Made by a program: the position numbers and the translations under genes | NCBI GenBank assembly: GCA_013054445.1 | Contig: JAAMPI010000039.1 | Span: 20,992 to 84,991 of the forward strand | DNA: 64,000 bases | From: Cudoniella acicularis | Taxonomy: Eukaryota; Ascomycota; Leotiomycetes; Helotiales; Helotiaceae | Direction: 5' to 3' | In this document: positions 9,403 to 58,377 of the stretch, in pieces | How the letters are laid out: each line of letters begins with the position of its first letter | How positions within the stretch are numbered: position 1 is the stretch's first letter | The notes under the pieces: model-generated | The model's input: only the letters and a program-made list of their open reading frames with translations | What the model was told of the DNA's origin: nothing | Database searches by the model: none

Positions 9403-11906
9403 GCTTGCGCGTCGAAGGCAAAAGTTTTTTTTTTCTCTCGACCTCTCCTCCTGTCTCCTGAATGTCCAACCCCAACTGCAGTTCCAACAGACCTCACTCA
9501 CCTCACTCAACTCGCACTTCGTCACTCACCCACAAGGGAGCAGCAGCAGCAGCTTCCCTGCGAGTCCGGTCTCGCTGCACAGCAACAACCCCTCGATCCG
9601 TTCTTTTTCGTTCTTCAAGGCGCGATGGACATGTATGACCATTGATCAGAACTCGAGTGCTTTTCGCACTTGCAACGCAATGCAATGCACGGATGGGCTC
9701 CTTTAGTCTGCTTCGATGTGCTGCGCTGCACTGCGATCCGTCCGCACTGGGCTTTCAAGGTTGGGCACCGGCCTCTGGGCTCGCGGTTTGAGTTTCCGCC
9801 TTTGTCACAAGTGTGCTGGATTTCCGGTGCCGAGTCGTGGAGCCATGGGACTAGGTAGGTGGTAAGTAGGTACTAGGTACTAGGTACGGATCGGTCTGCT
9901 CTGGGCCACGCGACAATATTATATGATATCTGAGCTGGGTAGGGATGTAGTTCTGGATATAGGAGCAAACGTGGATATAGATATATCGTCGAATATATAT
10001 AGACAGATAACTCCTGTCTGCGGCACCGATGCTGAAGCGCGCATTACATGCAGCTGCTGGCTGGCCTTTTAGAACCGTCGCCGTCGTGGTGCGTTCCAAC
10101 GGCTCCCAGCTGTTCAACCCGGATGGATGCAAGCAAAGTACCTGCTTGTCGAGGTACCTCGCTGCACTACGACGACGTCTAACAGCCCAGCAGTCTAGCA
10201 TCAGCCATTTAAGACTCGTCGTGGCCCCGCGATGCGTACCCGTTGTCTTTCGCGGTGCCAATGATTTCTCTTGCCCCTCGCCAACCCTAGCTAGCGAGCT
10301 CCAGCAGTCCAATAACCCCGCGACCACTGCCGCAGGCCCAGAATGCCCATTGCCTTTCAGTGCGCCGCGCCGGCCAATGCGATTGCAGACTTACCTCCTT
10401 TGTCGTGCCACTGGTCGACTGCTGGGCGCCTGGCCGGCCATCAAATCGACCTGTGCGATGAGGCTTCACTGCTTCGTACATCATATTGGTTCGGGCTGCG
10501 TTGCGTTGCAAGTCTTCAAAGTGAGTGAGATGCGATGGCGACCGAACCAGCGCTCTCGTCTAAAGTATCGCTTCCAAACCAGCGGCGTCACACTAGTAGT
10601 GGCATTGGCCGTGAGAGGTTACCACGCCTGGCCTTTCTTTGGAAATTCTCCTTTCTTTTCCTTGCATAACTGCAGCCGGGAAACATAACCACTGATTGGA
10701 TGTCAGGATGTATACTTAGCTTCCGAAGCAGCTTACATTTGCACGCTTGCATGTTGGTCCCAAGTAACAGGGTAATCACGGGGTGATATGCACGTGATAT
10801 GTAATATCCCCCACGCAGGCGGCCTTGGCACCTTGGCACTTTGGCCGTCATGCACATCAATAGCGAGCTATAGGGTTTGGGCCTCGCCTCTATGAGAAGA
10901 ATGTCTGAATGTAACCCGGATACAGTAATCAATGATTATCTCTGCGGGATTGCGCTCAACCCCTGTGGCCGTTGTGGTCGAGTCAGACTAGCAAGTCTCG
11001 GCGAGAAGATATGCTGCAGAGGCCAGTCCTGGGCCAAAGAGACAATCTATCACCGTGCTGCCATATCAATAGTGAACACAAATCGAAAATACTAAGACAA
11101 TCTTTTGATCTGTTCGGTCCGTGGGGAACTATCGATTGTATTTCTCGGGTTTATATTTGATCCTAGAATAGATCCCTATCTATCACTTGTCAACGCTCAA
11201 CCTATGATGAAATGCGGGATGTCCTTTCTTTTTGCATGGCTTCCTCGATTCGACGCCTTCTCGGGAAATAAGCGGGAGACACCGCTGTTTGTCTCGGTTT
11301 TGACTCGGACCCCGAACCGGCAAAGAGAACCGAGTTGTCTCATGTATAGGCATGGCTGCATTGATCTGTGGGTGTATTTCTGGCGCGGGATGAGAAGTCG
11401 GTGTATCGTAAGATATATTTGTTTGTGAGCTTGTGCTCGGGTTGATGATTCGGGTTGGCTGGATAGTAATTGATTGTCTTCTAACTACATAAGACCTTGA
11501 ACTTAATTGCTCACCGCCTTGCTCATGTTCTGCGAATGAAAGACCTCGGCTTCCCCTGGAAATAGAGTTGGTTGACTTAAGATGGTTATAAGTCCAGTCA
11601 GCTGGAGGTAGGCGGTTTCTACATCCTCTTTGTTTCATTGATAGCTAAAATATTACGGAACGATTTGCCCCGGTCGAAGGAGATGAACCGGCCCCCAAAA
11701 TGTCTCCTGGTTTTGCTTTGCTGTGTTCTTCTTGATATCTTGTGTCGGAACGTTAAACGTTATTTTCCGTGTTGGATCAGTGACTGGTAGGAGCCACGAC
11801 CTCGAATATTTGTTTAGATCTTCCTTGTGGGTTTATGGGCTTCCTCAACAACTCACCAATTCCTTGCTTGACGCTATTCGATAGGAGCAAGGTTTCTGAT
11901 TGTCTC
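9403..11906. other. long intergenic stretch, no convincing gene
   Basis: The first part is likely 5' leader and promoter of the Rap-type gene. Positions 9840-9900 repeat the motif TAGGTAC several times. A 219-codon plus-strand frame at 10029-10688 has no recognisable domain and a composition rich in Arg, Cys and Trp, as expected for chance reading of GC-rich DNA. From 11100 to 11900 I see nothing. Confidence 0.5.
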
Positions 11907-15281: not shown

Positions 15282-17802
15282 CTATTGCAAAATAATATCT
15301 ACGAAACCCGGGCTCCCCTCGTCCCGCAGCGCTTCTCCGTTCATGATGCCGCGAACATACGCCTCGCCAACGAACTCGTACCGTCCATTCTGCGAATGTC
15401 GAAGAATAAAAGGGAAATCTGAGCCTGCCACGATCCATATTTCGTCGCCTGTCTTGGCAGCCGTGCATGCTGCCCCTAGGCTTCCAGTCGACGTGCTAAA
15501 AATTGCCTTTTCTCTGGATAGGTATCTAGACCATTGGAAATGGTTCTTTGAGTTGATAAATTTGTATGCTGTGATATCTGCAGTAGTTTTAATGGGTGGA
15601 AGGAAGCGTACTGGAGGTATGCGGTGGGGGAATATTTCTTCGTATAAGTGTACCGACAGGTCTCCCCAGGAGGATAGCTGCATCAAAGTTAGGATTCGTG
15701 TTCGCCAGACGCTTTGGCATTCTTCTGCTGTGTTTGCTTTCGATTCTGCCGGGTCATTGAGATATGTTGATAAAGGATCCACAACCGCTGTATCCCTTGT
15801 TTCTTCCACCTGCCGGCGTTGAGCTCTTGGAACCGGGAGATGAGTTGGAGCATACCTTCAATCAAAAAGTCCGCGAAGGCGAACCCGGCATTGATTGGGG
15901 CTGGATGCTGGTCCTTCCATACATCTACTATTAACGTTCTCCATATAGCCTCAAATGACGTTTCGAAGAAGTGTTCAAATATCTTTAATTGCGGCTCGGT
16001 GTCTTCGTAAGAACAACAGATTAGTTCAAGTACCCCCCATGGATTTGAAGTTCCCATCGCTGCATGGCATCTGGTAGAAATATTGGGGTTCGCCTCATGT
16101 TGAAACGACGTAGACGATTCTGCAGATGTATTCTTGATATTTGGGTCCCCGCCCTGGATCGGGCGAACTTCAACCTTCCAGCGTCCATATAAAGGTTGAA
16201 TATCAATAAGCACTGGCATCAATGGCGTGAGGTTATTCCTGTCAAATTTTGCAAGTGTTTTGATCGATCCAATCTTCTTGCCTTGGACTTTCAAATGGTT
16301 AGGATTCTCGTTGGAAGAACAAGCCACTTGCCAGGCATGACCTCCACTCGCGTTATACGGGCACTCCAAATTTAAGTTGTCCTCCGCTTTCTTCACCCTG
16401 AGTAGATTCTCAAACGCTTGGAACGAAGTACCACAACTCCAGTCGGGAACCCACGAAGGCCGGGAGTCTTGGTACCATCTCCTTTTCTGACGTGTGACAA
16501 AATGCCAAGATTTCCAGAGGACTTGAGGATAACCCAAGCCGCATCTGTATAAACTTGCGCAACAGTTCGAGAATAGTCAACAGTTGGCTTTGGCTCTAAG
16601 ACTTGGTGGGGCCAAAGACTCAAGAACGCATAAACCCGGTCTCGAGGGTCTTGGCACTGTGAAGAACGGAAGCTAGCGAGAATCTCAAGATGGCTGGGTA
16701 CTTTTGGACGTTCGGAAAAACGGATTAGGGGATCAACAATTCCGATGCTAGCACGAATCTTTCGAATGAGGTGGATGATTGTTACTGGGTTTATTTCTAG
16801 AACTTCGGATGCCGATATGACCTCGGTGGCCAGATACATAGGAGTTGGCGAGGCAAGGAGTCCTAATGCTATCTTTATTGCATTGTTCCAGATGTTGCTT
16901 ATGTTGAGGCTTGCTTGAAGACTTGTGGTTGCGGATACCAATTTAGACCAACAAGTATATGTCGGGCCTACACTGACAAGGCCAAATTTTGACCATACAA
17001 CTTCTTGAACGATCCAGGCTCGCCGAAACCAGCGTCTTTCAAAGAAAGCAAAGAGGCAACGCCAATATTCCGGCGTTATTTGCTTTATCCTGAGTTCTTT
17101 ATACTGCGAGGACTCGAGATCATAAGATAGTTCAAGTTTCTCGAGAGACCCGGGCGGGGCTCTTTCCAAAGCATCAATAACTAGAAGCGCCGGCAAACTG
17201 AAATCATCTTCGGGGCCTAGCCAGATGTGAGTGGTTTCAGCGTTCCTGTAGATCCGATCCATGATCTGAACTTGGGAGTTCCGCTCCAGCAAGTCCTCCT
17301 GATTAATACAAATTGCGTCAATCCATATGAGTTGATGTACTACGGGTTTCGACTCCAGGACCTGACCGAGCTTGTTGAGGGGGAATTTTGACCGCCTAGC
17401 CGTACGAAGAGATAAAAGCGCATCATACAAATTGCGTCCCATCTGAAGAACCTTGCCGCTGCATATTATTGGTACCTTGGTCGCATAAAGTATATCTGCT
17501 TTTGCTGCATCTTCTTTGCTGCGAAAGACAGAGAATGGGTTTCCCCAGGTATATGAAAGTGCATCGTATGATGTTGGGTTTTCAAGATCGTTCAAATCTA
17601 CTGTGTGAAGAGTGCAGACAATGACGTCTTTAGTATGCCCATCACTATAGAGCTTGTCTTCTTCCTCTAGATCGGGCTTTTCTAAATTGATCTCTAACAG
17701 CCTTATTGAGCCTGCAGAGGGAAGCGGGCTGTATGTAAACTCTGATAATTCTTGTAGAGCTTCGCGGAGGGTAGACTCGACTCTGTCAGATGCCGAATCC
17801 AT
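15282..17802 (-). pseudogene. HET-domain (heterokaryon incompatibility-type) protein with an internal frameshift
   Basis: The N-terminal HET domain is clear: YDALSYTWGNP, IWIDAICINQEDLLERN, VQIMDRIYRNA, THIWLGP, RRWFRRAWIVQEVVWS and the later DPRDRVYAFLSLW. HET proteins trigger allorecognition cell death in ascomycetes. The first frame runs from 17802 to about 16460 and reads normally to KGDGTKTPGL. The expected continuation SWVPDWSCG lies in another frame, so about four bases appear to be missing at 16454-16460 within a CCTTCG stretch. As read, the protein ends after an unrelated tail at 16393. A further frame change near 15810-15855 is explained by an ordinary 46-nt intron (GTATGC...GGCAG). 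The last part ends at 15282. It is a recently broken allele or a sequencing error. Confidence 0.75.
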
Positions 17803-40282: not shown

Positions 40283-41483
40283 TCAGTAGCTATAACAAAG
40301 GAGATTTGAATGAGTCGACATGACCTGTGATACCGGCTTATCTTCCGCCAACCCAAACATCCGCAAAGCATCTGTCAGCTGAGCTTTTTCAGTGGAGTGG
40401 TGTGCCCGCTTGCCATGATAAGCTAAAAGCCGCTCCCGAGGAAGTTTTTGTTGCCATAACCACCACAATCTATCAAGCTGAGCATGGTGGAGGAAGAAAA
40501 CAGGATCATACGGTGCAGTGAAGCTAAAAAAGTCACCACGTACTCCATTGGGGATGGTGGAATGTGGGCCATTCTCCACTGCCAGGAAGAACTTCTCATA
40601 GTCTGGCTGCCGCATAATCTTTTCAACAACTTCTGGTCGAACACCAGCGCCTGAGAAAACTCCCTTGTCGTTAATTCCATCCCCAAAACCTCGAGAGAGG
40701 CAATGGGGATCATACCTGGTGCCGTAGAAAAGCGCAGTTTGGCCCGCAAAAGGCCCGTCCACAACGCAGCGGCCGTGGCCCAAGACGATTTCACCTGTGG
40801 AATTTCCGTCGCCACCAAAGCCATTTTCAGAATCCCATACTGGAGCTTTGGTGATTTTCTCCCAATCAAGAGTCCAGTCCCAATACCTGCCGAAACTTAG
40901 TCAACCATTTGGAGGCAGCGTTGGGAGGGAACTTTTCATACGGTAGGTTGCCATTGTATTCACAATCTTCCTTCAATGATTTTTCATAGACGTGGATGAA
41001 GTAACGATGCCATGGATAGAAAGCAGCAGAGCCGTGTGCTAGTGAACTCTTTAGAAGGTAGTTCGATTGAAGCAAAATAATTCACCACTTACTGCCGCCA
41101 CTGACTTGAGCGTGGGCCCATGGGAAGTCATCGTACAAAGTCCCATTGGGTGTTAGTCTTGACGGTGTTCGCCCAAGACATTTGACAGCATTGATATAAT
41201 TCTTCTTCTCTGCTCGGCTCAAGCTCCTCCATTCTCTCCGAATTGATGGCTGAGAGCAAGACGTTTTAACTTCATCTCCTGTTGGTTGTAATCCCACGAT
41301 TGTTTTCCAAAATACAGCAAGTAATACAAAAGTGATGGGAGGTAACAAAAGGATAATGCTGATTCGCAGTTTTCGATGCCTAACAATGCTCTCTGACTGC
41401 TGCTTGAACTCGGTATCATTACGATCAGAGCTCGGCAAAGGAGAATACCGCCACTTAGAAAGCGTGAATGTTCCAATAGTCAT
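40283..41483 (-). CDS. membrane-anchored tyrosinase of the dikaritin RiPP cluster
   Basis: Type-3 copper enzyme. The N-terminus (MTIGTFTLSKWRY start, or 13 codons upstream) has one membrane helix, ISIILLLPPITFVLLAVFW, so the catalytic part faces the secretory lumen. Copper site A is in DDFPWAHAQ and AHGSAAFYPWHRYFIHVYE, and after an intron (about 40889-40945) comes PYWDWTLDWE. Copper site B is GPHSTIPNGVRGDFF and DPVFFLHHAQLDRLWWLWQ. The C-terminal LLCYSY is typical for this family. A first intron lies near 41050-41095. In ustiloxin and phomopsin clusters a tyrosinase homologue acts on the Tyr-containing core; here the core contains two Tyr. All copper-binding His expected in these motifs are present. 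It is the left-most gene I assign to the cluster. Confidence 0.88.
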
Positions 41484-42573
41484 TTTGAAAGACTTAACGA
41501 CTACAAAACTGCAATAAGCCATATGATGAGGAAGATAGGAGGAGGGGAGGCCGATGGACCCTGAGAATCTGAGATCCGATTTCGGTCACGGAAAGTGTTC
41601 AAAGGAGAGTTGTATCTCTTACCCCCACCATGACTCCATGGAGAATTGGATAAATAGAAGTCAACTTTCCTCAATAAAAGACAATGCAGCATAAATGCAT
41701 GCGTGACATGCTCGTGTCACCACCGATCTCGAATCTCCCTAACCATTGAAATTTTTGTGATCGTAAAACGAGTATACTCCTCGCAAGTGAGTCGGGATCT
41801 CCTCCATGGCTCCACAATCATGGCTGTGCCCTAGCATGATTTCCCCGCAGATTCTTATGCATGCTCTGTTGGCCGGACTTCCTCTCCGCAGAACAGCCGA
41901 AGTATCTTGCCTTGCTTATACCCCTGCAGTATGTTAGCCTTACTTGCGCTTCTTGTCTCGCTGTGCATAAGCGGTGAGTAGGTAAGAAGATAGGTCATGA
42001 ATACGGCTTTTACGTGAAGTGAAAAGGGGGGTTATGGCAGACTCGTGGGAANCTCTCCCCAACAAGCACTGCATTCAATAATTTCAATTGATTCCCTTCC
42101 ACAACCTCTCAAGATCCGCGCCCACTTCATCCACACGCACTATCCATTCAGAGTCCTCACTCCCTTGTTAAACAGCTTGCATGACAGTACTGATCAAGAT
42201 TCCTGCCCGCGAAAGATCAGCTAATTCGCCGGGTTGTTCTTAAAATTCATATACACTCTAATTTCTTCGTGCTACCCTCAAAAATGCTCGCCTATTGGTG
42301 ACCAGTAATTATCCTTGGCTTTCAACCTCCGACGACATGATCTGTGAACAAACTCCTTATTGGTAGCTTGTCAAAAATCCTTCACGTATATCTGCCACTG
42401 TCAGTTGCGAAAAAGGGTTTGGAAAGTAAGAAACCCAGCCTTTTTTAACTCGCCTGCCAGAACATGCTCTGCTGCCTTTCAGGAAAGTCCCACTTGAATG
42501 GATTGGCACATTTAGTCATGTCTTGTTCAAGGTCAAGATGTTCTCAGTTGAATACTGAATTTTACATTTCTAT
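41484..42573. other. cluster spacer, contains one ambiguous base
   Basis: Promoter side of the tyrosinase gene and 3' flank of the next minus-strand gene. Base 42052 is N, the only ambiguity noticed in the window. TTCCCCGCA at 41841-41849 recurs inverted at 46999-47007 upstream of a UstYa-like gene. No coding frame is seen. Confidence 0.5.
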
Positions 42574-43194
42574 TTAACAAAAAAGATACTTGATTTTCCC
42601 TTTGACCTGAATTTCGTCACGGTCGGGTGTCCTGTCAAGGAGATGCAAAATGTGCATCAAGCAGTGACGTCCATGCCCATAATCTCCTGCCATAGAATCG
42701 ACTCTGCTTCCAGACTTTACTGCTTCGTAGAATCGAAGCAGCACAAAAACACAATGTGCCGAGTGTTCACGTTGTGTTGTCCACCACCACCCTTCATCCA
42801 GATTCGAAAGCTCTTGATGTGTCAATTCCTTCTCTCCCTCCTTGTCGGCCCAATATTTCCACGGTGAAGAGCCAGCGTGTGCAATGAATTCATCTGTCCC
42901 TGACCGTTGGCATGAAGGAGGCATCCAGCTCACTGCCAAATCATCAAAAATACATCCGAGCTCTAAAGCCTCCATGCTCGAATTACCACAGCTGGTAGTC
43001 TTCTCAGCAACTGATCGAGAAGATACTCTTATTAACGTAAACAAGATGACTGCTAAAGATGCTATGGTGATACCGACAAGCGCAATTGCCAGACGTCGGT
43101 TTTTTGAAGAAGCTTTTCGAAGAAGGATCTCCTCTTGGGTTTCTGATTGGGGGACTTGAGCGTACTTCCAGCCTCGGGGCAAAGCCAAATGCAT
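42574..43194 (-). CDS. divergent UstYa-like (DUF3328-related) membrane protein
   Basis: A single open frame of 206 codons starting MHLALPRGWKYAQVP. The membrane helix is LAIALVGITIASLAVILFTLI. The lumenal part begins SCGNSSMEALELGCIFDDL and SWMPPSCQ. Two HxxHC motifs are present, HSAHC in TQREHSAHCVFVLLRF and HGRHC in YGHGRHCLMHIL, the pair that defines UstYa-type oxidases. It differs from the other three in the cluster: no introns, shorter, and a different N-terminal lumenal signature. It belongs to the branch of small fungal proteins often annotated as hypothetical or tyrosinase-cluster associated. Likely role: oxidation of the precursor core or an accessory to the tyrosinase. Its start lies 880 bp from the divergent precursor gene. 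Confidence 0.75.
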   Translation of the reverse strand: MHLALPRGWKYAQVPQSETQEEILLRKASSKNRRLAIALVGITIASLAVILFTLIRVSSRSVAEKTTSCGNSSMEALELGCIFDDLAVSWMPPSCQRSGTDEFIAHAGSSPWKYWADKEGEKELTHQELSNLDEGWWWTTQREHSAHCVFVLLRFYEAVKSGSRVDSMAGDYGHGRHCLMHILHLLDRTPDRDEIQVKGKIKYLFC

Positions 43195-43942
43195 TTTTCT
43201 GCAAAAGTCAGGTTGCTGATTCTTTGGTAACTTCGTGATGTCATACCCTCAACGTCAAAATGAATTCCCTTCAGCTTGTTAGTAAAGGAAGTTTGAAAAA
43301 CATAAATCCTTTAGTATCGAGCAAAGACGAGAATGAGTTACTTTCAAATGAGAAGCGAAAATTTTTGTAGACTGGTTGACTTTGATGTCTTCAACCCTTC
43401 TGATGTGCGGTCAGCTCAGTTGGGGAACAGCAGAGATTCGAAATTATTGAACCAAAACAGGGTCTGAGGTCAATACTTCGAGACCAACATTATTGCCCCC
43501 TCAGATATGAAGTATATGCAGGTGAGAGCCACACCGCTTAATGGAGTAACTCTTTCAAAATGGAAGGTGAAATTCCGGTAGCGTCTTTGACAAAGTCGGT
43601 AAGTTCAAATTTCAAAGCCTGAGATTCCACACAATGTCTATCGACTCGTCACTTAGTAATCTGATATCAAGATATATCCATGCATCATGCATGCATATTA
43701 ACTTCATGCATAACCTGCTGTAATAAGTAATTGACCGCCATCTCGTCACCAGCAGGGGCGTGTGAGTAGCCATCTGAATCATTTTATTTTGCCGTAAGCT
43801 GTACCCGGTCCTTTTGTGTGAACTTGCTTGAACGATCTGCCGCATATGAAAGCTCTAGAATTGGCAAGTCCGTTACAGTTGTCATGAAAATAGAATATTT
43901 GAATTGATGCAATTCAGTGCACATGGTGTAAATTTGACTTCG

Positions 43943-43951
43943 CATATATAC
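43943..43951 (+). promoter_or_regulatory. TATA box of the precursor gene
   Basis: CATATATAC lies about 125 bases before the precursor ATG at 44075, followed by a C/T-rich leader (TTTCCCTTCC, TCTCACTACTCTCACTGC) typical of strongly expressed fungal genes. Confidence 0.45.
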
Positions 43952-44074
43952 AGGACTGTGGCTATCCCAGAGTACAGCCATACAGTTTCCCTTCCACATC
44001 ACCATTCTGCTCTCACTACTCTCACTGCTTCTGTCCTCAACTATCTTCAATTTCCAGTCCAACATAACGTCAAG

Positions 44075-44515
44075 ATGCATCTCGCCAAAGCTCTCGGAAT
44101 CGTCGCTTTTGTTGTCACTGCGGTCAATGCTTTGCCGGCAAAACCTTTGGTATATCCACTTTCCAATTCATCGCGTTATAAGCATTGAGTGCAATGCAGC
44201 TGATGCTTAACAGACTCGGTCATGAAGCGGGATGATCAAGATTCCGCTTACATCATTCAGTACAAGCGTGACGATCAGGATTCTGCGTATATCATCCAGT
44301 ACAAAAACAAGCGCGAGGAAAAGCGTGATGACCAGGACTCGGCCTACATTATTCAGTACAAGGACAAACGTGAGGACGCGAAGCGTGATGATCAGGATTC
44401 TGCCTACATTATCCAGTACAAGAACAAGCGTGAGGACGCCAAGCGCGATGATCAGGACTCGGCCTATATCATCCAGTACAAGGACAAGCGAGCTGATGAA
44501 GATGACGCTTACTGA
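44075..44515 (+). CDS. dikaritin-type RiPP precursor with five KR-bounded core repeats
   Basis: Exon 1 encodes a signal peptide starting MHLAKALGIVAFVVTAVNAL. The second exon encodes five tandem units, each DDQDSAYIIQYK, separated by Lys-Arg sites with acidic spacers (NKREEKR, DKREDAKR, NKREDAKR, DKRADEDD). Units 1 and 2 are joined by only a single KR. This is the layout of UstA/PhomA-type precursors cut by Kex2 in the Golgi. The probable core is SAYIIQY, which has Tyr-x-Ile as in ustiloxin and phomopsin cores plus a second Tyr. Splicing is not settled. Donor GTATAT at 44150 with acceptor CAG at 44211-44213 is the most usual-looking intron but leaves the exons out of phase. Donor 44175 with the same acceptor, or donor 44150 with AG at 44226-44227, keeps phase. 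Stop at 44513-44515. Confidence 0.88.
44225..44491 (+). repeat. five-unit coding repeat in the precursor
   Basis: The five units encode identical DDQDSAYIIQYK but differ at silent sites. The core Ser codon is TCC, TCT, TCG, TCT, TCG, and the Ala codon GCT, GCG, GCC, GCC, GCC. Spacers differ in sequence and length (one KR; NKREEKR; DKREDAKR; NKREDAKR). Confidence 0.95.
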
Positions 44516-45306
44516 GGGATCAGATGGATTTATTATCTTGGCAAAGGTTTCCTTCAAAGAAATGGGCACTTTGTGTTTGAGCAGGAGGAATTATAGGGCA
44601 ATATTTTTCAACACATTCCTTTGGTTGTATTGTCGGAAAGATAGAATGAAACTTCATTTTGTCTACACATCATATACTTGTGTGAAATTTGAAGAATCTG
44701 ATTGTGAAGACTTAAGAGTATCAGTTCTAAACTTAAACCAAAATACCTCACCCCTAACTCTGCTTAAAATCATTTGTTACAGAAAGGTTTGAAAGTATAA
44801 TTTTTGCGAATGTCCAAGTCAAACCAGACTATAATCCGAGAATCTTGCAACTCGCTCAGCGCCCCACTTTACAACGAGGCACTTTTGGAGAGACCAGGAG
44901 TTTCTAACGAGAGATCAAGGCTGGTGATAACATAGTGGTAGGTTGAGCCGAACTTGCTTAGCTCGTAAGGCGTTGTACAAGGTAACTGCCTGCAATGAGC
45001 GGCGGTGACTCCGGTGAGACTTCGAAGTTCAGTCCCCACTCCCCACCAGCATGCACTTCATTAAATGGATTAACCAATTTACCCCACATCCAACGTATCA
45101 TTGAGTCATTTTCCAAATTTCTTATCTATCGGTAAATGTTGAATCAGCTGTGTAATTCACATTATTCCAGTAGTATAGCAGCACATCAACTCCAAGTTGC
45201 CAACCCTACCCCCCGTCAATGCTATCTCTTCTCTCCACTTACATCCCAACTCTTGAGGTCCTTTTCAACATCAAAGCTACATTTCACTTCCAATTATCTT
45301 TAAACC

Positions 45307-46432
45307 ATGGACCACGATCAAGTATCTTCTCAAACACCATTCTTGGACGGAAAAGTTGAAAGATACAGTTCCGAGAGCGAATATGAACGTATTCCACGAG
45401 CCAAACGTAGCTGGCTAAAAAGGAATCCAAAGCAGATTGTTTTGAATTTTCTGCTTATTGTAACATGTATTTCTTTGGTAGCTTTTGATCATTGGTACTT
45501 ACGTTCTGTCTATTGCTCACCTCAAAATTTGGTATACAGTATGATTAGATGCCCTTCAAGTTTGAAAAATTTGCAAGGCCATAGTACTGACGCATTGATT
45601 AGCACCAGCGAGAGGAAACCTTGAATATGTGAGAATGGAAATGGATACAGCAGGAGACCACCGCAACAAGTACATGGGATTCACGGAGACCGCTGACGAA
45701 GCTTGGACTGAACTCATGTCTAGTAAGTGGACAGCTTAATGAATCAAGATCCTTTAAGTTCATAACTAACATTTTAGGAAATAATATCAGACTCACAGAA
45801 GAGGATTTAAAAGCTATCAACCAGACTTCGGTTTCCCTTGGCGGTGGAGGCTATCTTGGCATGTTATCGGTTTACCACGAGCTTCATTGTGTTGTAAGTC
45901 CAAACCGAATTTTTGAAACCGAATTCCTAAAACTAAAATATGCTCTCCAGAAAATGATCAGATGGGCGTTTAACAAAGTCAGATATCTTGATAGATGGTC
46001 CGAGCAAGATGTTATAGACCTTCCGGTCCATATTGGTATCTCCAAAAGAAAACTTGGTGCTAAAATACTGCTAACAGTTCACAGATCACTGCCTTGATAT
46101 TGTTCGTCAGAGCATCCAGTGTAGAGCGGATACTACTATAATCACTTACTGGTGGACAGACAAGAGTCGGGTCCCGGAAACCGACTTTTATGGAGAACAT
46201 GAGTGTATTAATTGGGATATGTTTGAGGCTTGGGCTGATCAGCATACTGTCGACATTTACGTACCAGGCGAGCTCAATCATCCAAAATACGGTATGTATC
46301 ATTATCACTCTTATCTGTTTTTCAGTCAACTAACAAATTTGATTTCCAGGCCAGTCATACCCAGACGGTCATAGATTGATAGAAGATGGAAAGGTCCCTG
46401 TAATACTCCCCGCCTTGCCAATCCAGAATTGA
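45307..46432 (+). CDS. UstYa-like oxidase (DUF3328), copy 1
   Basis: A short cytosolic tail (MDHDQVSSQTPFLDGK) precedes the membrane helix IVLNFLLIVTCISLVAF. The lumenal domain carries the family signature NLVY|TPARGNLEYV split by an intron (about 45539-45602), KYMGFTETADEAWTELM, then HELHC in SVYHELHCV. Introns at 45894-45950 and 46036-46084 bracket KMIRWAFNKVRYLD. The second motif HIDHC is assembled across the latter intron and followed by LDIVRQSIQCRADTTIITYW. UstYa and UstYb of ustiloxin use the two HxxHC motifs for oxidative macrocyclisation of the core peptide. Further introns lie near 45723-45778 and 46292-46349, and the C-terminus is ILPALPIQN. No lesion is seen. Confidence 0.85.
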
Positions 46433-47245
46433 AATCCAATCAAGGTATTTTTACGGGATGAAGGGCTGGATGGATTTTTCTGTGTCTCTAAGTTCATGGG
46501 CCTATTTCTCTTATAGTCAATACTTTTATTTCAAAGTTGCAAATCAAGCATTAGACAAATCCAACTTCATCAGGATTCATGTACAGTAAAAATTCATGGC
46601 CAGCGACTCCGTACAGAATGAATCTACTATTTCGGGCTCTTACAAACTAGCATTATTGATTTTCTTCCTGGGTCTCCAGTCCCTAATGTGCCTCAATCCT
46701 GCAGCCGAAGCTGCGGTGAGGAGAGGCAGGATGCACAGTTTCTTCCATGACCTTATCGCAGCTTTCCTCACAACTCCTGCCCATTTTGCTCATTTCAGTC
46801 CTGCAGATGAAGTCGATGAAGTTCAACTGCAGTAATCCGTCAAGGGTTTGCAGATTATCCGACGTTCCCCGTGGTGGCCCCGGCTATCATAGAACCAGGG
46901 CCCCTTGACTATGACGGTTGAGCGACGTGCATCCCCGCATCGGGGCTATTGCTGATACGGGACTGCATGAAGATGGCATCTACGGTGATCCACAGTTTTG
47001 CGGGGAAGATTAAACAGTGAAATTTTAGCGCATATGCATGCAAACATGAACCTTCAGGGGGCTGATTCATTCATCCGAGATCCGAAGTCATTAGGGTTGG
47101 GTGTGGGGGTGTTGTCAGTGAAAGAAGGACAATAATGCTCTTACCGCACCCTGGTAGTTGCAAGGCCTGCCAGCCGTCAGGAAATGAGGTTGTTCCTTTA
47201 CTCTACATTGGATTCTGTGTTCTCTTCAAAGTTTGTAAGAGTTCA

Positions 47246-48388
47246 ATGATGGAGCCTTCTCATGATGAGTCTCGATCAAGCACGGAAAGTGAGTCTACAC
47301 TACTCACAAGTGATGCTTTGATCAAGAGAAGCGAGGATGAGACACACACCTATCGGTGGAATTCTTTTCAACGCAGAACTCGTCACTACAACCGATATCC
47401 TCAACTTACAATATGGATTCTTCACGCCGCATTACTTTGCTTCTCGACTTTTCTGTTAACTTTTTCCATCATATTTCACTACAATGGATCTGCCAGGAGC
47501 AAGGATAGCTGCTCTGTTTGGAGTTAGTATGCCATGAAAGCGGGAAATAACACAAAGCTAATCAAGGTCTCTCCAACATAGATCCCTACACTTCTATCAC
47601 AGGCAAAGACTGGGAGGTGGTCCATAGAAACAACTCAGGCATACCAAATAACCCCTGGAAAGGAGAACCAAGCCCAGAATTGGACGCAGCCTGGAAGTCA
47701 ATTTGGATGAGTACGGCCTAGCACGATATTTCAGACATTTCATACTAATTTTTGCGTGCTTAGTTGGGGATAATACCTACAGTGAAGATGAAATTCGAAA
47801 GGTTGGAAAAGATCCAGCAGGAGTTGCACAGTGGCCGCCAGAATTTGGTGGGGGTTACGTTGCAAAGATGGAGGTTTTTCATCAGTTACATTGTTTAGTG
47901 AGTTATTTTGTCCCTCAGCACTCGCTCATTTTGACATCCAGACTTAGTTCTTAAATTTCAAAAATGTTGAACTAAGAACATAAGACATCCATCCAACTAA
48001 CGCCCGAAATACAGAATACCCTTCGCCAAGCCCTTTCTCCAGAGTACTACGGGGCAGATACCCCACCACGTGGGCATGTTGGTAAGGTTATCATCCTTTC
48101 CAGAGACATCATGAAGTCTTGAAATATTTTTCTGACCAGTCGATATTGGTAGTTCATTGTATCGAAAAGTTAAGAGAAGCTTTGATGTGTTTCAGTGACA
48201 CGACTGTCAAAACCTACATCTGGATTGAAGATTCTCCAAACGTCCAGCCCGACTTTTCCATGAGGCTACACTGTCGCAATTTCGATGAAGTTAGAGAATT
48301 TTCCCGACGCCGGGCTATGACGATGGAGGCTCAGAAGGCCATGAAGAAGAGCGATACAAACATCATCTGGCCGAAGCTTCCGGACTGA
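47246..48388 (+). CDS. UstYa-like oxidase (DUF3328), copy 2
   Basis: Start MMEPSHDESRSS gives a Ser-rich cytosolic tail, then the helix LTIWILHAALLCFSTFLLTF. Lumenal signatures are EVVHRNNSG, PWKGEPSPELDAAWKSIW, GGGYVAKMEVFHQLHCL (first HxxHC = HQLHC) and, across an intron, HVVHC followed by IEKLREALMCFSDT. The introns after HQLHCL (47898-48014) and within the second motif (48082-48152) are at the same residues and phases as in copies 1 and 3. The C-terminus NIIWPKLPD is usual. An upstream open frame from 47135 lacks family character, so the 47246 start is preferred. Confidence 0.85.
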
Positions 48389-49899
48389 AAATAAAACATA
48401 TTATTCTGGGTCTTGGAGATAGCTCTGTATCAGTATGTTCCAGTCCCAGGAACTTTTAGAGAAAAAAGTCAAGGAAACAAATAATTTAGGTGAAGCGCAT
48501 TCGCTCCATGAGAAATATAATCATTGTGAGTGTTTATATATACTACGACAGTGCGGTTTTCATGGAACTTCTTGTTGGCTGTTACAAATTTCATGCGTTT
48601 CTGGAATGTTCGGCGTCACAAATCCCAATCGCGATTATACTCGCGCTCCCCCCCCCCCTTTTTACTTCTCGCTTAGCCCCCGAGAGATTGCTATCTTGGA
48701 AACCGACATTTACACAATAGGAAAAAATTAAGAATAGGAAGTATTGCAACTAACAATGGCTTTGACATTCTACGAAGCATATATTGGTTAGGTGGTTTAT
48801 GATTATCTCGCATAGACAAATTTCATACTGTAAATGACCAGTACGTGAAAATTTTGTATTTTTAAATCTGAATGCAATATGTTTCAACCCCTCTTCACCG
48901 GTGCATGAATCCTTTCCCCTTGCAAATATTACTTTGGATAACGCGTTATTTCCGCAGCAACACTTAGCGCAACTAGAACAGTTTGATTTCCTGGGGAGAG
49001 GGATCTGTTAAGACCCAAGTTTGAATCCTGAGCACAAAAGAATAAAACCTTAAATATTGCCGAGTAAACTCAGCATCAAGTAACCAGTAAATTCTGCCAG
49101 TTTGACTCTTCTCGCAAGGAGCTCATAGATTAGTATTGCAGTGGCTACGCATGTATTTCCTGATCAAATTCGGCGCAAAAATCCGCTCGGGAATGGCACA
49201 TGGGCTGCCGAGGTGAGTGGGGGTTCAGGTGCACCCTCTGCCCAGGAGTATTCAATACAAGGTCTTTGGTCCAAAAAACCCGAAAAAAAAGAATCCAGCA
49301 CTTGCATGCAGTTACGAAGGAGTTACTTCTATTGGTCCATTTTTAAGTTCTAACACACAGACATAGATGAAACATCCAATAGATATGCGAAAGGCGTAAG
49401 GCGAATTTGCTTATCAGTTGGTAGATTCGGTCCGGACGATTTAGCCGGTAACTTGCATTTCCTACAAGCACCACGTCAGGACGTTGGAGTATCAATGTAT
49501 CATGGTACTGTTGGTGGCGTTGTAGATGAAGGTAGCATCTATCGAAATTTGATAACTAGACGCCTACCAGGCTCCACATGTCAGCTTGCTGAGATGTGGA
49601 TGTGACACAGATCTCACCTTCCATTTTCGATACGGTAGCGCGCACGATTTCCAGGTTTTGGTTATGCTGTAGGACCGCAAATGCATGCCGCAAGGTCCTC
49701 CATCCAAAAGGCCACGAGGTTTTCTGGAGAGAGCTCTGGGGAGCTGTTGGCCGACGGCTGTCACGGAGCTGGAGGTCTTCGGTATCCACATTCTCTCACT
49801 CTATACGAGAGAGCTTTTGCAGGTACAGTCCAGCGTGAACTTATCCATGAGTCTTTCGAATCCATTAATTCCATTACCTTAGCAAATTTCACATCCATA
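48389..49899. other. spacer between UstYa-like copies 2 and 3
   Basis: Frames are overlapping and short. A 70-codon frame at 49141-49353 and a 75-codon frame at 49564-49791 on the other strand show no domain. The stretch may contain the long 5' leader of copy 3. Confidence 0.4.
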
Positions 49900-50936
49900 A
49901 TGAAACCATCCTCACACAAATATCGAGCCCTAAATAAGGATGATAAAAGAGAGGAGCCATGTGGCAACGAGGTTGACTCCGAATCCATCAGTAGAGTTGG
50001 GAAAAGAAATGTCCTTATTTTCTCGAATCCATTACAGCTCTCAGTTGCGGCTTCTTTCACTTTATTGTACAGTACAGCCTTATTATTTTTGGGATCGATA
50101 ATGCCGTGGGCGTCACCGCGTAGGTCGGGGAGTCATTGTGCGTGCGAAAATCCCCATATCTTCTTCTCAAAAATTCTAATACTTTTACTCACAGATTGGT
50201 TAGAGGGTGTACCAACAAACTATGACCATGAGGTCATGCTAAATGGAAGTCGAAATTTTCCATCGATTTATAGAGGCCCTCCTTCCCCAGAGATTGATGC
50301 GGCTTGGTATCGGATCTCTCAATGTAATTTTATGATCCACTCTTGACGCCGAAATGATATTGGAAGTTGGGCTAATATATAAATATCTAGCTTCATCCTT
50401 AGATATAAAGCTGTCTGATGATGACTTGCGAGAGCTAGGAGTAGATGTCAGTACAGCAGTCAAGTTGCCCATAGAAGCCGGTGGGCAATACTTTGTGCAA
50501 TTTGAATTCATTCACCAACTTCACTGTCTGGTCAGTTCCACCTCTTACCCAAAAGATGATTTTACATTCCAATAACCTTACAATTATTTTGAAATTCTAG
50601 AAAATCCTTCGTATGTCCACATACTTCGATTTGTACAGAAACAGCGAAGAGTTCGCAGAAGGACCCGACGCTATCCGAACACACCAAGGTTCTTTCCTCT
50701 TGACGATGCCCATTTCCACCTAGTGTAAATGCTGATGAAACTTCGCAGACCACTGTATTGAGATGTTTCGCCAGATAATTATGTGCAACGCGGATACAAA
50801 TCTCGTCACGCTCCACTGGGCGGAGAATCGGTCAATCCCGTATCCAGATTTCAGCTCGAAAAGGACTTGTCGAGATTTTGAGGCGCTGTTAGAATGGACG
50901 GTCACTCATAAAGCTCCGATGTCGAAGCCTCAGTAG
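49900..50936 (+). CDS. UstYa-like oxidase (DUF3328), copy 3
   Basis: Start MKPSSHKYRALNKDDK, chosen because it gives a normal cytosolic tail; the open frame extends upstream without family similarity. Membrane helix about LQLSVAASFTLLYSTALLFL. Lumenal part: NYDHEVMLNGSRNFPSIYRG, PSPEIDAAWYRIS, then after an intron LDIKLSDDDLRELGVD and FEFIHQLHCL (HQLHC). Across the second conserved intron HQDHC is formed, followed by IEMFRQIIMCNADTNLVTLHW, PYPDFSSKRTCRDFEALLEW. The two diagnostic introns are at 50531-50600 and 50689-50748. The stop is TAG 50934-50936 after MSKPQ. Tail to tail with the ABC transporter. All motif residues are present. Confidence 0.85.
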
Positions 50937-51252
50937 TTGAGTAGGAATTTGGGTAAGGAAACATGGAAAGTCTAAGAATGGCGAAACAGTGGAAAAGGCA
51001 CCTGGGGTGCTGCAAATGTTTATAACAGTAATGTCAATAAAATGGAATTCAATATTTCTAGCCCTTAACATAAACGAGTTTATATATAAATTCAATACGC
51101 AGCAAGTAAAATTGCCGATAGTGCTTGACGTACAGTTATGACAAAAAAAACGTGCCAAAAAGTTCGTGTGAAAGTGGATTAGGAAGACCCATTCCTTATC
51201 GAAATCCCATAGTAGCCCTCTCTCTGAGCGCCAAAGTACCAACTCATTGCCC

Positions 51253-54200
51253 TTAAGAATTATAGAGAGTCTTAAAAGCAGACGGCCTCCTGAGCAATTC
51301 ACCAGGGGCATCAAATTCCACCAAATTGCCAGTATCAAACAGAGCCACCTTATCATAGTCCAGGATATTGTCCAAATTATGTTCAACGGAGATGACAGTA
51401 TGTTCTTTGAACTCGCTGCGTATGAGCTTTTGCACAATCTTGTTGGTTTCAGTATCCATGCTGTCCAATCGCCATTCGTGTCAGTCTAATCAACGAAGGG
51501 TAGAAGGGCTAACATACCTGCTGGTTGCTTCATCAAAGAGGAGGATTTTACTGTTGGAGACTATTGCTCGAGCAAGGCAGAATAATTGCTGCTGGCCACG
51601 TGAAAAATGTACATCAGTACAACGAGCATCCAACCCGCCCCTATCTCTAATTAGGTCCCACAGCTGAACATTCGTCAGAGCCTTGATAATAGTGTCATCT
51701 GGTTGAGACATTTTGGGGTCCATATTCAGACGCAGGGTTCCTTCGATGAAAATTGGATCTTGTCCAACAGTCGTGATGCGCGAGCGAACATCTTGGATTG
51801 AAGTTGTTGAGAGATTGATTCCGTCTATCGTGATTGTCCCTGCTTCCAGGTGTAACATTTGTAGGAGACATAGAATTAATGAGCTTTTCCCACTATTAAG
51901 AAGTTAGCTATACTCTAATAGATTTGGGCTGCTGTCTTTACACACCTGCCTGTACGCCCACAGACTCCGATCTTCTGGCCTGGGGAAATAGACATAGAGA
52001 TATCTTTTAGCACAAGTGAGGAGTTCGAACTTGTCACCTTAGTAATATGTATTGGGTTTTGAAAAGAGTTTCAGATTACCTGTATGATGCTGAGATATGG
52101 TCCAAAGAAATGGTGCCAGCAAAGGGCCACTCTCCGTTTGGAAGTGGTTCCACACTAGGCCGGAGTTCTGAAGGTGTTTGTTCGGAATAGTCCCGTATGC
52201 GAGACACTGCACCTATTGATGTTTCCAGGCCAGTCCAACAAATAATGAGCATAGTTAGTGCTTGATTGGCGCTGACGATATTAATCAGGGCCACTCCCAC
52301 CTTTCCCCCACTGGTCGAGTCCCGAACTGTGATGGCGAAAATGACGACGAGTAAGGCGAGGAAAGCTGTGAGGATATCTAGAGCAAATGTCAACCAACGT
52401 TGAATGCAAGCTAGAAGATAAAATGGTTTCTGAGAAGCATCAAGAAGTGTATGGTTTCGTTGCTGCATCGAAGCCTCCCATCCGAATGCTCTGATAGTTG
52501 CTAAGCCACCCAGAGTTTCTAGAAATTGTGAGTATAGCGGGGCTTTCGCTTCAATGTCGAGCAATCTTAGTTGGCGAGATGTTCGTAAATAGTATCGTTG
52601 AATGAGGTAGACGGTTGCAAGGCCAAATGGAATGACCGCGGCGATGTATGTTGCGGAGATGCATACAATGATCAATCGCATGACAAGTGTCACAAGACCT
52701 TTTAGCAAAATGTTTCAGTTGTATTTCTAGCCGAATCCAAGAAAAGAACACCAAAATAGTAGAGACAATTAGAAGTACCTTCAAGAGTGTTGATCCCCAT
52801 CGACTCAAGTTCCGAGTCAATGAGCTGCATATCCTGGCTGAAGCTATTGTGTGTCAGCTCGAACCAAAATTGTTCTACTTGACGTTGTATCGCACCGGTT
52901 GATAATATTTCCAGTATCTGTTGTAGTAAAGAAAGACAAGGGAGCTCTACGGATTAATGATTAGCCCAGATTTTGGAAGTCAGCCCTATAACTCCATATA
53001 AAGAGTATTCAGAGCCTAGAGAGGTCTAAATACCTGAGAGTTGAAAGCAAAATTCTTTCGTGTAGTTTTCTTCCAGACCTAGGGACCATGATGAGTATGA
53101 AATGCCTAGATGCTTCAGTCAATAAACCTTGTCAGTCACCTTAGAGGGTCTTCCTACCTGCAAAACAACCACAATGAAACCATAGCGGCAACTCCAAGCA
53201 AGACGTAGACGCCGAGATAAAATCCATTATCATTACTTGCATTTGCGTTATGTTTCACCCATTTCTGTAACCAGAAAGCTAGCAAGTGCTAATTAGTAAA
53301 ATCTCAAAGAAGCTAAATAGGCTTAACTTACTTGAAAACACAACGCAGAAAGCACTAGCAACGGCCATACTCGAAGCAAACACAACATTTTTCCAGCTGG
53401 ATGCTTGAAAGTAATATTTATAGACTGCGAGATCACCACTTTGTCTATTGCTTCCACCTTGTGCCATAGTGTCGACTGTTTCTGATGGCGGCTCAACATT
53501 CCCTTTTGTCGAAGGCATGGATTCTTTTTCAATTTGCTCTTTTTCAATGTCACGTTTGTCATGTAAAATCTGGGTTACGTAGCCTCCAGATGACTTCAAC
53601 TGACTGAAACTGCCTTGCTCAGTTATGGTACCTGAAATTCCAAGAGCAATAATGTGGTCTGCAAATTCCATGCGGTGTACTGTGCCTTATTAGACCAATT
53701 TGCAAACTCGTATTATACTCACCTTTGTGTGTAACAAATACTACTGTAGTGCGTAGCTTACGCAGTAGACCTCGATGCCCGAAAACATGAGTAATGACAT
53801 GCTCTTCTGTGGCAGCATCAAGTCCACTCAAAACATCATCAAAGATAGCTATATTCTTTCTTGAATAGACAGCTCTCGCGATTGCCTGGGAGTCACTTGT
53901 TAATGAGTAAAAATAGAATAAAGAAGGTTTAAGCTTACCACTCGATGTTTCTGGCCTCCACTTAGACTCTCTCCGTTGCTTCCAAGAATGGAACCATCAC
54001 CACCGGGCAGGTCGTGAATATCCTTACTCAGAGCGCACGCTTCAACCACAGTATTATACCAAGCTTCGTCGAATTCTGAAATCCCGATGATGTTCTCTCT
54101 CAATGTCCCATTCACAAGCCAAGGTTTTTGATCGCAGAAGGCAATGTCGGGAGATGAAATAGAGACAACACCGTTAGTGAGTCTCGTTTCTCCGAGAAGA

Positions 54201-56509
54201 GCTTTCACCAATGTTGATTTACCACTGCCAACCGGTCCGATGATCATCGCTGTAGAGCCTTTCTGAATTTTGAAATTCACATCCTTCACGACCGTCTGAC
54301 TCTTTGTCCAACCGAAGCTTCCATTCAAAATAGATATGGCAGTGTTGTCTTCAACCTTGTTCACTTTGAATTCTGCCAGTTCCACTTCGGCCAACTGAGG
54401 AAACTCACACAAAGCTTGCGAACTAAGATGGTTAGTAGCGGGTGAAGTTTCAAGAAAGAACCTCGAATCTTGTCGGGATTCAGATGTCAAAAATTCCTGA
54501 ATTCGAGCGAAGCATGTCACCGCAGATATAATCTGAGGGACTATTTGAACGAATATGAGCAGGGGAGTGCCAATCAAAGACATAATTGTTAAGGAAGTGA
54601 AGGCCTGTGCCGTTAATAAAACCTGCTGGTTCCTAACCTTTGCAAGGATAGTGAAGAGAGCGAATGTGACAACCGGAGCAAGTGTATTTGTGACTTCCGC
54701 TGAAGTAGTGAAGTGTCAGTTCCAACTAAATGACCATGAGACTAAGTGATTACTTACACAGAACTATACTCGAGACTAGTAGTTTACGGTATTGTAGTGA
54801 GTCTTTGATCTCATCTATTCGCATACGTTGAATGAAAGACAACATGTAATTTTCTAATCCTACCATCTTAAGACCCTTGATTGATCCAAGCATGGTGGCT
54901 GTGGAGTTCAGTCGACTCTGAATAGCTGCAAGCCAAATTCCTTGAGACCTCCTAATTCGGGAAGACAGGAACATAGGCACTGCGGAGCAACCTGAAAAGG
55001 TATAGTTAGCTTCAGAAATTCGCACGACAGGTTTGAACCGAGTACCTAGTGCAAGAATGACTGGCATGATACAAGCTACACCAAGCTGTCTCTCTAGTAG
55101 CCACACTGCCAACACAAGCTCGATCGGGGTTGCCCATAGTTGGTGTAAAAATTGCAAGGATTGCGCTATTCTCTCCACATCTACACTCATCAGTGTGGAA
55201 GCTGCACTCTCATTGACAAAAGTGATGTGTAAGTCCTGAGATTTCAAGTAGATCAGGGTTATAAGCCCCCCGCGAATTTTGGTGGCAACCCGCAATGTCT
55301 CGTAGGAGTAATGTCCCGTAGATATCTGAGTCTCAGAGTCAGTTCCGGCTTCCAGTTCGATCGATATTTCAAAGACCCACCGCAGCACTAAAGAACACCA
55401 AGAAGTAGGCTCCAATCATTGCATAGCCGGCGTTGGATACACTCTGACTCTTTGGGGAATCTATATTGTTAATCAAGGTTGTTATTAAAAAAGGCTGCGC
55501 ATAGGTGAAACCGGTCAGGCATAGTCGGGGTAAAACCCCGGCTAGCAATGACCATCGAAAGGTCTTTGCAACAGTAAATATTAGAGCATGCTTTTCGCTT
55601 TTTCTGGCTGGAAATGGTAAGAAAGGCATCCCAACAGGACTTTCCGAACGCAGAGTTTCTTACCTTGATCCCAGCTACTCTGCAATTGGGTTTGCAATCG
55701 CTCTGAATGAAACTCTTCCTCGGCCGCATCCAAATCATTCAAAGAGATGATTTTACGAGCCCCAGTTTTCAGAAGCCAAACCAACCACCAGAATATCCTC
55801 AAATTTGCGAATCCACTTGTGGCTTCTCGCACTAAATTTCGATATGGAGGGTTTAGATTATTCCGCTTCTCTCTCATCTCCAAGCAAAGCAGAAGGGCCT
55901 TGGCTATAACTCCAGCCGTGAAAACTTTCGCAAGAATAAAATTTATTCCTGCTAGCCACAAAGTCCTAGCTCTAGCTATATCAAACAATAACGAAGTGGA
56001 TAAGTAGATTTGCAAGATCGCAGATGGTCGAACGGAATGAGTGTGATCATAAAATGACAACATGCCAATTGAAACTGCATCAAAAACCGATAAAAACGCT
56101 GCCACGACTGATAATTGGGTACGTAGAGTTGTGGGCCGAGTCCAGTTGATGAGCAAGTATACCTGCAAAGCAAAATAAATCAATGCATTGGCCTGGGAAT
56201 TATGGAAAATTAGTCACGATTGTGCGCCGAAAAGGAAAGGATAACAGCAATTGATTTATGATATATTCAAGAACTAACCAGCTTCAAAAATTGAAATGAG
56301 CCATGTCGGACTTTCTTTGGCCCGCCGTACAGTTCCACAAGGCGAAGGGGCCCAGCTATAAACAAAAAGGTGGAGGGAACGATAGACAAAATGCTCTCTT
56401 CGAACACTAGAGTGAAGTCGAAATTTCCGCGACAATTGATTACTGATGGGCCAAAAGAATTGTCCATAGCAGCCGGGCACCAGCTAGCATTGGGATGGTA
56501 CTGTTCCAT
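51253..56509 (-). CDS. ABCC (MRP-type) ABC transporter, probable cluster exporter
   Basis: A full-size transporter in many exons. The N-terminus MEQYHPNASWCPAAMDNSFG leads into an extra membrane domain (TMD0) and two six-helix domains. NBD1: Walker A GPVGSGKST (about 54215), IAFCDQKPWLVNGTLRENI, signature LSGGQKHRV, D-loop SGLDAATEEHVI. NBD2: Walker A GRTGSGKSS spliced across an intron near 51893-51944, DPIFIEGTLRLNMDP, signature FSRGQQQLFCLARAI, Walker B KILLFDEATSR and the switch region VISVEHNLDNI, where most relatives have AHRL. The C-terminus is PSAFKTLYNS. No disabling break was noticed, though I did not resolve every exon. ABCC proteins export bulky anionic or peptidic compounds. Position beside copy 3 suggests export or self-protection for the cluster product. 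Confidence 0.88.
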
Positions 56510-57429: not shown

Positions 57430-58095
57430 TCATGTGATTTTCTGCTCGATCCTGCGTTGTTTCTTAGCAGACATTTGTCTCGACAATTCGATGGCAGCCG
57501 GGTTAGAAGGCTGGCTAAACTCCGAACATTGGTGACAATCATGCCCGGAACAGGTGCATCCTTCAGTGTTAGGTAACTGCTCTCCTGTTGTCTTTGCACT
57601 TCCAGCCTGCGCCTTCCCCTTCGTTTCTCGGTTTAAATCTGGGGGGCATCCGCATGGACGTAAATCGATCTCCTCCCCTATGGCTGTCATCTGTGAACCT
57701 TCGCTGGGCATGCATGAATCCTGCGCTCCTTGGGGAGCGCTTGGGATACGCTTCGAGTGGGAATGCTTAGAGGACTTGGCAGTCGTGATCTGGGCATCAC
57801 TCGACTGGGATGACTGAACCTCCATGGTTTTACTGCAATTTGAAGATACCGAGCGGGCCTTGACTTTGTTGCAACTTGACTTGGATGACTCGGGGGCCTT
57901 GTCTTCGCTGCAATTTGAAGGAGATGCCGAACAAGCCACGACTTGGTTGCAATTTGGCTTGGATGATTTCGGGCCTTTGTCTTTACTGCAATGTGAATGG
58001 GACGACGAGTGGGCTACAATTTTCTTGTGGTGGGACTTGGATGACTTCCCCCTCTTATCTTTGCTGCGTTTTGAATGGGATGGCGAGTCCACCAT
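57430..58095 (-). CDS. Ser/Lys-rich repeat protein of unknown function
   Basis: An open frame of 221 codons. The first half consists of about four imperfect repeats of a 23-24-residue unit with the pattern CSKDKGPKSSKPNCNQVVA / CSEDKAPESSKSSCNKVKA, rich in Ser, Lys, Cys and His. The second half has paired-Cys motifs (CGCPP, CTCSGHDCHQC). It has no signal peptide or membrane helix. An upstream exon in 58100-58370 is possible because the first Met is immediately preceded by coding-like sequence. Disordered nuclear or RNA-binding protein is a guess only. Confidence 0.5.
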   Translation of the reverse strand: MVDSPSHSKRSKDKRGKSSKSHHKKIVAHSSSHSHCSKDKGPKSSKPNCNQVVACSASPSNCSEDKAPESSKSSCNKVKARSVSSNCSKTMEVQSSQSSDAQITTAKSSKHSHSKRIPSAPQGAQDSCMPSEGSQMTAIGEEIDLRPCGCPPDLNRETKGKAQAGSAKTTGEQLPNTEGCTCSGHDCHQCSEFSQPSNPAAIELSRQMSAKKQRRIEQKIT

Positions 58096-58377
58096 GACTT
58101 TGTTGTGACTTGATCGAGGTGGCCGGGCGGTCTTGATTTCGTGAGTGTTTTCTGCGCTGTCGTCGTTTATTTCCCAGTAGTAGGTTACTTTCGGTGGAAT
58201 ATACTTTCTACTTATTGGTCGCAGCTAGCAAAAAGTCAGACATAACCTTCGGAAAATAGGAGTGGATCATACGCGTAGTTTGTTGATTCGAAGAGAATAT
58301 CCAGGTCCGTAATCGTTTGGAGCACAAACGTCGAATCCCCAGGTAAAGTTCCAGAAGTCGACTCCGAGATTCATCGA

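What the first reader, a model, noticed from the sequence alone, without database searches (positions are those of the whole stretch)
40283..56509. Complete dikaritin-type RiPP cluster with an apparently new core peptide
Within 16 kb lie a repeat precursor with signal peptide and KR sites, a membrane-anchored tyrosinase, four HxxHC UstYa-type proteins and an ABCC exporter. Seen directly: all motifs and repeats. Established: ustiloxin, phomopsin and asperipin clusters combine UstYa/UstYb proteins with Kex2-cut repeat precursors, and some include a tyrosinase. Inferred: the product is a cyclic or bridged peptide built from SAYIIQY, with Tyr-to-Ile or Tyr-to-Tyr linkage. This core is not among the dikaritin cores I can recall.
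Basis: partly seen in the sequence, partly recalled or inferred. Interest (0 to 1): 0.95.

Follow-up and report, generated by a model that had tools for sequence, protein, structure and literature searches.

The report
Fungal cyclic-peptide (dikaritin-type) gene cluster
The fungus Cudoniella acicularis carries seven neighbouring genes that very probably turn a repeated 12-residue peptide into an oxidised cyclic peptide, and one of the four copper-motif proteins among them belongs to a family that Pfam does not recognise.

Summary
The window comes from Cudoniella acicularis (Helotiales). Over 16 kb, between housekeeping-type genes, lie a membrane-anchored tyrosinase, a secreted repeat precursor, three PF11807 (UstYa/DUF3328) proteins, a fourth double-HxxHC protein and an ABC transporter. 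The precursor has five identical copies of DDQDSAYIIQYK among Kex2 sites; they differ at 10 of 36 bases, all third codon positions, so the peptide is under selection. It keeps the Tyr-x-Ile spacing of ustiloxin and phomopsin cores (PMC7329392). A dikaritin-type RiPP cluster is the best explanation. "Complete" is not shown: no methyltransferase, S41 peptidase or zinc-finger regulator appeared in what was scanned. New cores are ordinary in this class. The unusual part is gene E (42577-43194, minus): double HxxHC motif, no PF11807 match, overlapped antisense by the GenBank precursor model. Eleven such genes were found in this genome; 3 of 9 sites outside the window lie within 3 kb of UstYa genes (P 5e-5, uniform model), another beside an NRPS. 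Its likeness to UstYa does not exceed the motif itself, so common ancestry is unproven. Expression and product are untested.

The parts
40283..41483 (-). Tyrosinase (UstQ/PhomQ-like role), 363 aa, N-terminal membrane anchor; my introns 40887-40941 and 41039-41092
   Evidence: PF00264 E 1.1e-38; splice model; hydrophobic segment 41-59; nearest solved fungal relative catechol oxidase 4j3p/4j3q, E about 1e-38
42577..43194 (-). Gene E: 206 aa, intronless, one membrane segment, HSAHC(x25)HGRHC; not PF11807 (stop codon at 42574-42576)
   Evidence: GenBank precursor model P0001 has an exon on the other strand at 42974-43093
44075..44515 (+). Precursor: signal-like N-terminus plus five repeats; intron 44150-44227 (GenBank) or 44175-44213
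44231..44482 (+). Repeat array, five copies of DDQDSAYIIQYK separated by KR-containing spacers
45307..46432 (+). UstYa-B, 280 aa, HELHC(x27)HIDHC; five introns in my model
   Evidence: PF11807 E 4.4e-45; models
47246..48388 (+). UstYa-C, 280 aa, HQLHC(x21)HVVHC; four introns in my model
   Evidence: PF11807 E 2.5e-47; model
49900..50936 (+). UstYa-D, 268 aa, HQLHC(x28)HQDHC; first two introns of my model uncertain
   Evidence: PF11807 E 3.6e-48; models
51253..56509 (-). ABC transporter, many exons (not fully spliced), putative exporter
   Evidence: ABC_tran E 4.2e-14 and 1.9e-19, ABC_membrane E 2.8e-16

Best explanation
A dikaritin-type (ust-RiPS) biosynthetic cluster. Inferred mechanism: the precursor enters the secretory pathway; Kex2 cuts after KR and carboxypeptidase trims, freeing DDQDSAYIIQY(K)-type peptides; the tyrosinase and the membrane-anchored, lumen-facing UstYa copper enzymes oxidise the side chains, most likely joining the first Tyr to the Ile two places on (Y-I-I, as in YAIG/YVIG/YVIP cores); the surplus of copper-motif proteins (three UstYa plus E) suggests further oxidations such as desaturation; proteases trim the flanks; the ABC transporter exports the product. 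Shown: gene content, repeats, motifs, selection on the peptide. Inferred: every chemical step.
For: Five repeats with only synonymous differences; KR sites and signal-like start; three PF11807 proteins within 6.5 kb downstream; tyrosinase two genes from the precursor. [quoted passage not shown] Passages of PMC12435403: double HxxHC forms a binuclear copper site. Passage of PMC10880069: extra DUF3328 proteins make dehydro residues in phomopsins.
Against: No expression or product data. No methyltransferase, S41 peptidase or zinc-finger gene in the 26 window sequences scanned. The tyrosinase has Pro where the second His of the usual CuB HxxxH stands, so classical tyrosinase activity is not assured. 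The precursor's splice site is ambiguous. No second genome with the same precursor was found.
Confidence: 0.85

Rival explanations
1. Same class but different chemistry: an asperipin-like product in which both Tyr residues of the repeat (Y-I-I-Q-Y) are cross-linked, rather than a Tyr-Ile ring.
For: Two Tyr in each repeat; asperipin-2a needs a single DUF3328 protein and its linkages involve Tyr rings (passages of PMC7329392).
Against: A tyrosinase is present as in ustiloxin and phomopsin clusters, and Y-x-I spacing is kept.
Confidence: 0.35
2. The precursor yields unmodified secreted peptides (pheromone or other signal) and the oxidase genes beside it act on something else.
For: 78% of KEP genes have no DUF3328 gene nearby (PMC7329392 passages); expression unknown.
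Against: Mating-factor KEPs almost never sit beside DUF3328 genes (same paper). Leotiomycete alpha-factors mostly carry GQ or PG, and C. acicularis is reported to encode one (passages of PMC10569646); the repeat here has neither. My three pattern searches did not find that alpha-factor in this assembly, so I could not check it.
Confidence: 0.08
3. A decayed or mixed locus: neighbouring secondary-metabolism genes without a working joint pathway.
For: Ambiguous splice sites in precursor and UstYa-D; only three of the 62 UstYa-bearing contigs had a tyrosinase within 10 kb, so the combination is uncommon here.
Against: All five repeats keep the same 12 residues; open frames and intact motifs in all four HxxHC proteins; housekeeping-type genes bound the block on both sides.
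Confidence: 0.07

Closest known systems
Ustiloxin B cluster (Aspergillus flavus, Ustilaginoidea virens)
   Same: Repeat precursor with Kex2 sites, tyrosinase, two DUF3328 proteins; core Tyr-x-Ile (PMC7329392, PMC6514808 passages)
   Different: Here three PF11807 proteins plus E, an ABC transporter, different core and flanks; no UstM/UstF/UstD-type gene seen among the sequences scanned
Phomopsin cluster
   Same: Several DUF3328 proteins (five there) and a tyrosinase; Tyr-x-Ile core (PMC7329392, PMC10880069 passages)
   Different: Core YIIQ(Y) instead of YVIP; no methyltransferase or S41 peptidase seen
Asperipin-2a cluster
   Same: Kex2 repeat precursor and DUF3328 oxidase; no methyltransferase needed as far as the passages say
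   Different: One DUF3328 protein there; tyrosinase present here
Lichen Clan R1 RiPP clusters (PMC12048977, passages)
   Same: UstYa/UstYb-like pair with a tyrosinase
   Different: Those have an O-methyltransferase and no recognised repeat precursor
CctR, ApnU, AprY (DUF3328 copper enzymes)
   Same: Double HxxHC motif in UstYa-B, -C, -D and in E; membrane anchor
   Different: E has no PF11807 match, is shorter and has its own conserved Cys/Trp pattern

Membership tests
Dikaritin / ust-RiPS cluster | Secreted precursor with repeated cores and Kex2 (KR) sites | tested here: met
Dikaritin / ust-RiPS cluster | At least one DUF3328 (PF11807) protein with two HxxHC motifs close to the precursor | tested here: met
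   three; motifs
Dikaritin / ust-RiPS cluster | Tyr in the core, with Ile two residues on (ustiloxin/phomopsin branch) | tested here: met
   YII in all five repeats; comparison from PMC7329392 passages
Dikaritin / ust-RiPS cluster (ustiloxin/phomopsin branch) | Tyrosinase homologue | tested here: met
Dikaritin set as summarised in PMC6514808 | Methyltransferase, S41 peptidase and zinc-finger regulator | tested here: inconclusive
   None among 26 window sequences scanned; many smaller ORFs not scanned; not all known members have them
Dikaritin / ust-RiPS cluster | Oxidised cyclic peptide product | not testable with these tools
   needs LC-MS/MS
DUF3328 / UstYa family (for gene E) | Match to PF11807 | tested here: not met
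   no PF11807 row for E at E<=10; genome search with PF11807 did not report it; of ten relatives scanned one had a PF11807 row at E 0.94, below cut-off
DUF3328 / UstYa family (for gene E) | HxxHC(x)nHxxHC motif and membrane anchor | tested here: met
   residues 144-148 and 174-178, spacer 25; hydrophobic segment 37-55; both motifs in predicted helices
DUF3328 / UstYa family (for gene E) | Sequence relationship beyond the motif | tested here: inconclusive
   hhalign E 0.0036, probability 9%; above all 100 column shuffles but matched by 49 of 100 shuffles that keep the H/C columns

The most novel reading that the evidence does not exclude
Gene E represents a second, Pfam-invisible family of fungal HxxHC(x25-26)HxxHC copper oxidases, with its own CGNS..GC.FD..W.P..C signature, that works beside UstYa proteins in ribosomal peptide clusters and beside NRPSs elsewhere; it arose separately from, or split very early from, DUF3328.
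Probability: 0.45. Interest if true: 0.75.

Novelty: new member of a known kind. Interest (0 to 1): 0.5.

Why it matters
It adds a compact, clearly bounded cluster with an apparently new core and a defined 12-residue substrate to a class whose copper enzymology is only now being worked out. If the E family is enzymatic, present searches that rely on PF11807 overlook a set of copper-motif oxidases in peptide natural-product clusters, and genome surveys of fungal RiPPs undercount tailoring enzymes.

Tried and rejected
Alpha-factor pheromone: rejected on repeat content (no GQ or PG); three pattern searches for the species' own alpha-factor found none that I could recognise (0 matches; 6 matches, three of them taken as loci and read, no repeat array).

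Relatives of E in the protein database with E alone: none at E<=0.01. With the 8-sequence alignment: 11.

UstYa against solved structures: 0 matches at E<=10.

Position of the CuB histidines: phmmer alignments to haemocyanins place the residues differently; my reading rests on lining up the HxxxH stretch with 9 other readable tyrosinase loci of this genome.

Full report
Origin. The window is C1160:20992-84991 of a 53.2 Mb assembly in 1836 contigs. A protein search with the precursor returned one protein, NCBI 'hypothetical protein G7Y89_g1075 [Cudoniella acicularis]', on a contig of the same length, 84991 bases. The species is placed in Helotiales, Leotiomycetes.

Gene content. I modelled the genes by hand from GT-AG junctions and scanned the products. 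On the minus strand: a tyrosinase (PF00264, E 1.1e-38) and gene E. On the plus strand: the precursor and three UstYa proteins (PF11807, E 4.4e-45, 2.5e-47, 3.6e-48). On the minus strand again: an ABC transporter with two ATPase pieces and one membrane piece recognised by Pfam, five other pieces not. To the left are an NIF-domain gene that I read as TIM50 and a gene with a DUF7730 row below its cut-off; to the right are Rpr2-domain and DBR1 genes. The block of seven genes is thus bounded on both sides by genes of housekeeping type.

Precursor. Five copies of DDQDSAYIIQYK lie in one frame with nine [KR]R sites. The copies differ at 10 of 36 bases, every one a third codon position; if changes fell at random the chance that all are silent is about 1.7e-8 by a crude count. 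The peptide itself is therefore being kept. GenBank splices 44150-44227, so the first repeat follows LPAKPLR rather than KR; a 39-base intron 44175-44213 would give MKR. GenBank's model also has a first exon at 42974-43093, antisense inside gene E, which I regard as spurious.

Mechanism. Passages of PMC7329392 state that ustiloxin cores YAIG/YVIG and phomopsin YVIP share Tyr and Ile at positions 1 and 3, that these side chains are joined, and that DUF3328 proteins and a tyrosinase are required. The repeat here has Y-I-I-Q-Y, so the spacing is kept. PMC12435403 (passages) shows for CctR that HxxHC(x)nHxxHC holds two copper ions at a dimer interface in a membrane-anchored, lumen-facing enzyme. 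PMC10880069 (passage) attributes dehydro-residues in phomopsins to three of five DUF3328 proteins. By analogy, the tyrosinase and some UstYa proteins here would form the ring and the others would oxidise it further. None of this chemistry has been tested.

Tyrosinase detail. In the window and in a second UstYa-linked tyrosinase (C1370) the CuB stretch reads HS[TQ]IPNG.RGDF, with Pro where nine other readable tyrosinase loci of this genome have the second His of HxxxH. A third UstYa-linked one (C1124) could not be read there. All three share features such as WHRY.LHIYE or WHRYFIHVYE. Of 27 tyrosinase loci (my merging of the 48 matches) only these three lie within 10 kb of a UstYa match. Whether UstQ and PhomQ have the same change I could not check.

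Gene E. It encodes 206 aa with one membrane segment and HSAHC(x25)HGRHC. It has no PF11807 row up to E 10. Single-protein searches of the genome found ten further genes of this kind on nine other contigs. Eight of these ten show both motifs with a spacer of 25 or 26; C1167 has only one full motif in the stretch read and C1404 was not read. An alignment of E with seven of them at 20-27% identity leaves almost only C69, A76, C81, W90, C95 and the two HxxHC motifs invariant. A database search with that alignment gave 11 proteins, two from this species, others from Corynespora cassiicola, Leptodontidium and unnamed sources, all unnamed in function; ten of the 11 were scanned and none passed a Pfam cut-off.

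Where E-like genes lie. Of nine sites outside the window, three (C852, C1607, C1813) are within 3 kb of a UstYa match, while such zones make up 0.85% of the genome: P 5.0e-5 (within 10 kb, P 7.8e-4). This assumes uniform placement; secondary-metabolism genes cluster in general, and several of these sites are at contig ends, so the P value is optimistic. A fourth site (C111) lies beside NRPS condensation and adenylation exons. The other five sites showed no such neighbour in what was read. C1148 carries two E-like genes, and a Corynespora protein model joins two E-like modules.

Is E a DUF3328 protein? Profile comparison aligns only the two motifs (E 0.0036, probability 9%). The score exceeds all 100 column-shuffled controls, but 49 of 100 shuffles that keep the conserved H and C columns score as high. 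So E shares the motif and its spacing and nothing more that I can show. AlphaFold2 puts both motifs near the starts of two confident helices (residues 141-161 and 172-187); no solved fold matches. Works-like is plausible; membership is not established.

Novelty. No held paper contains AYIIQY or SAYIIQ, and two held papers mention the species, seen as listing and, for one, passages. In PMC7329392 the abstract and passages report 7878 KEPs, 2560 of them stand-alone, so a new core alone is routine. Its main text holds no YII and no Cudoniella; its supplements were out of reach.

Noticed in passing
window 42974-43093: The GenBank precursor model has an exon antisense to gene E, which probably hid gene E from annotation and spoils the signal peptide of the model.
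   Followed up: yes
L044:5073-5909 and 7136-9998: An E-like gene directly beside NRPS condensation and adenylation exons.
   Followed up: partly
L043:355-1014 and 1484-2158: Two E-like genes facing each other, 470 bases apart; a Corynespora protein (P0004) joins two E-like modules.
   Followed up: partly
window 40507-40560 (-), L054:3942-4000: UstYa-linked tyrosinases have Pro in place of the second CuB His of HxxxH.
   Followed up: partly
own genome, contigs C279, C368, C1580 and others: 121 PF11807 matches on 62 contigs (about 86 loci by my merging); C279 alone has many within 12 kb.
   Followed up: no
window 57430-58224: Serine/lysine-rich open frame with 39-78-base internal repeats next to the cluster, no Pfam match.
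   Followed up: no
window 16393-17802: HET-domain (heterokaryon incompatibility) gene.
   Followed up: no
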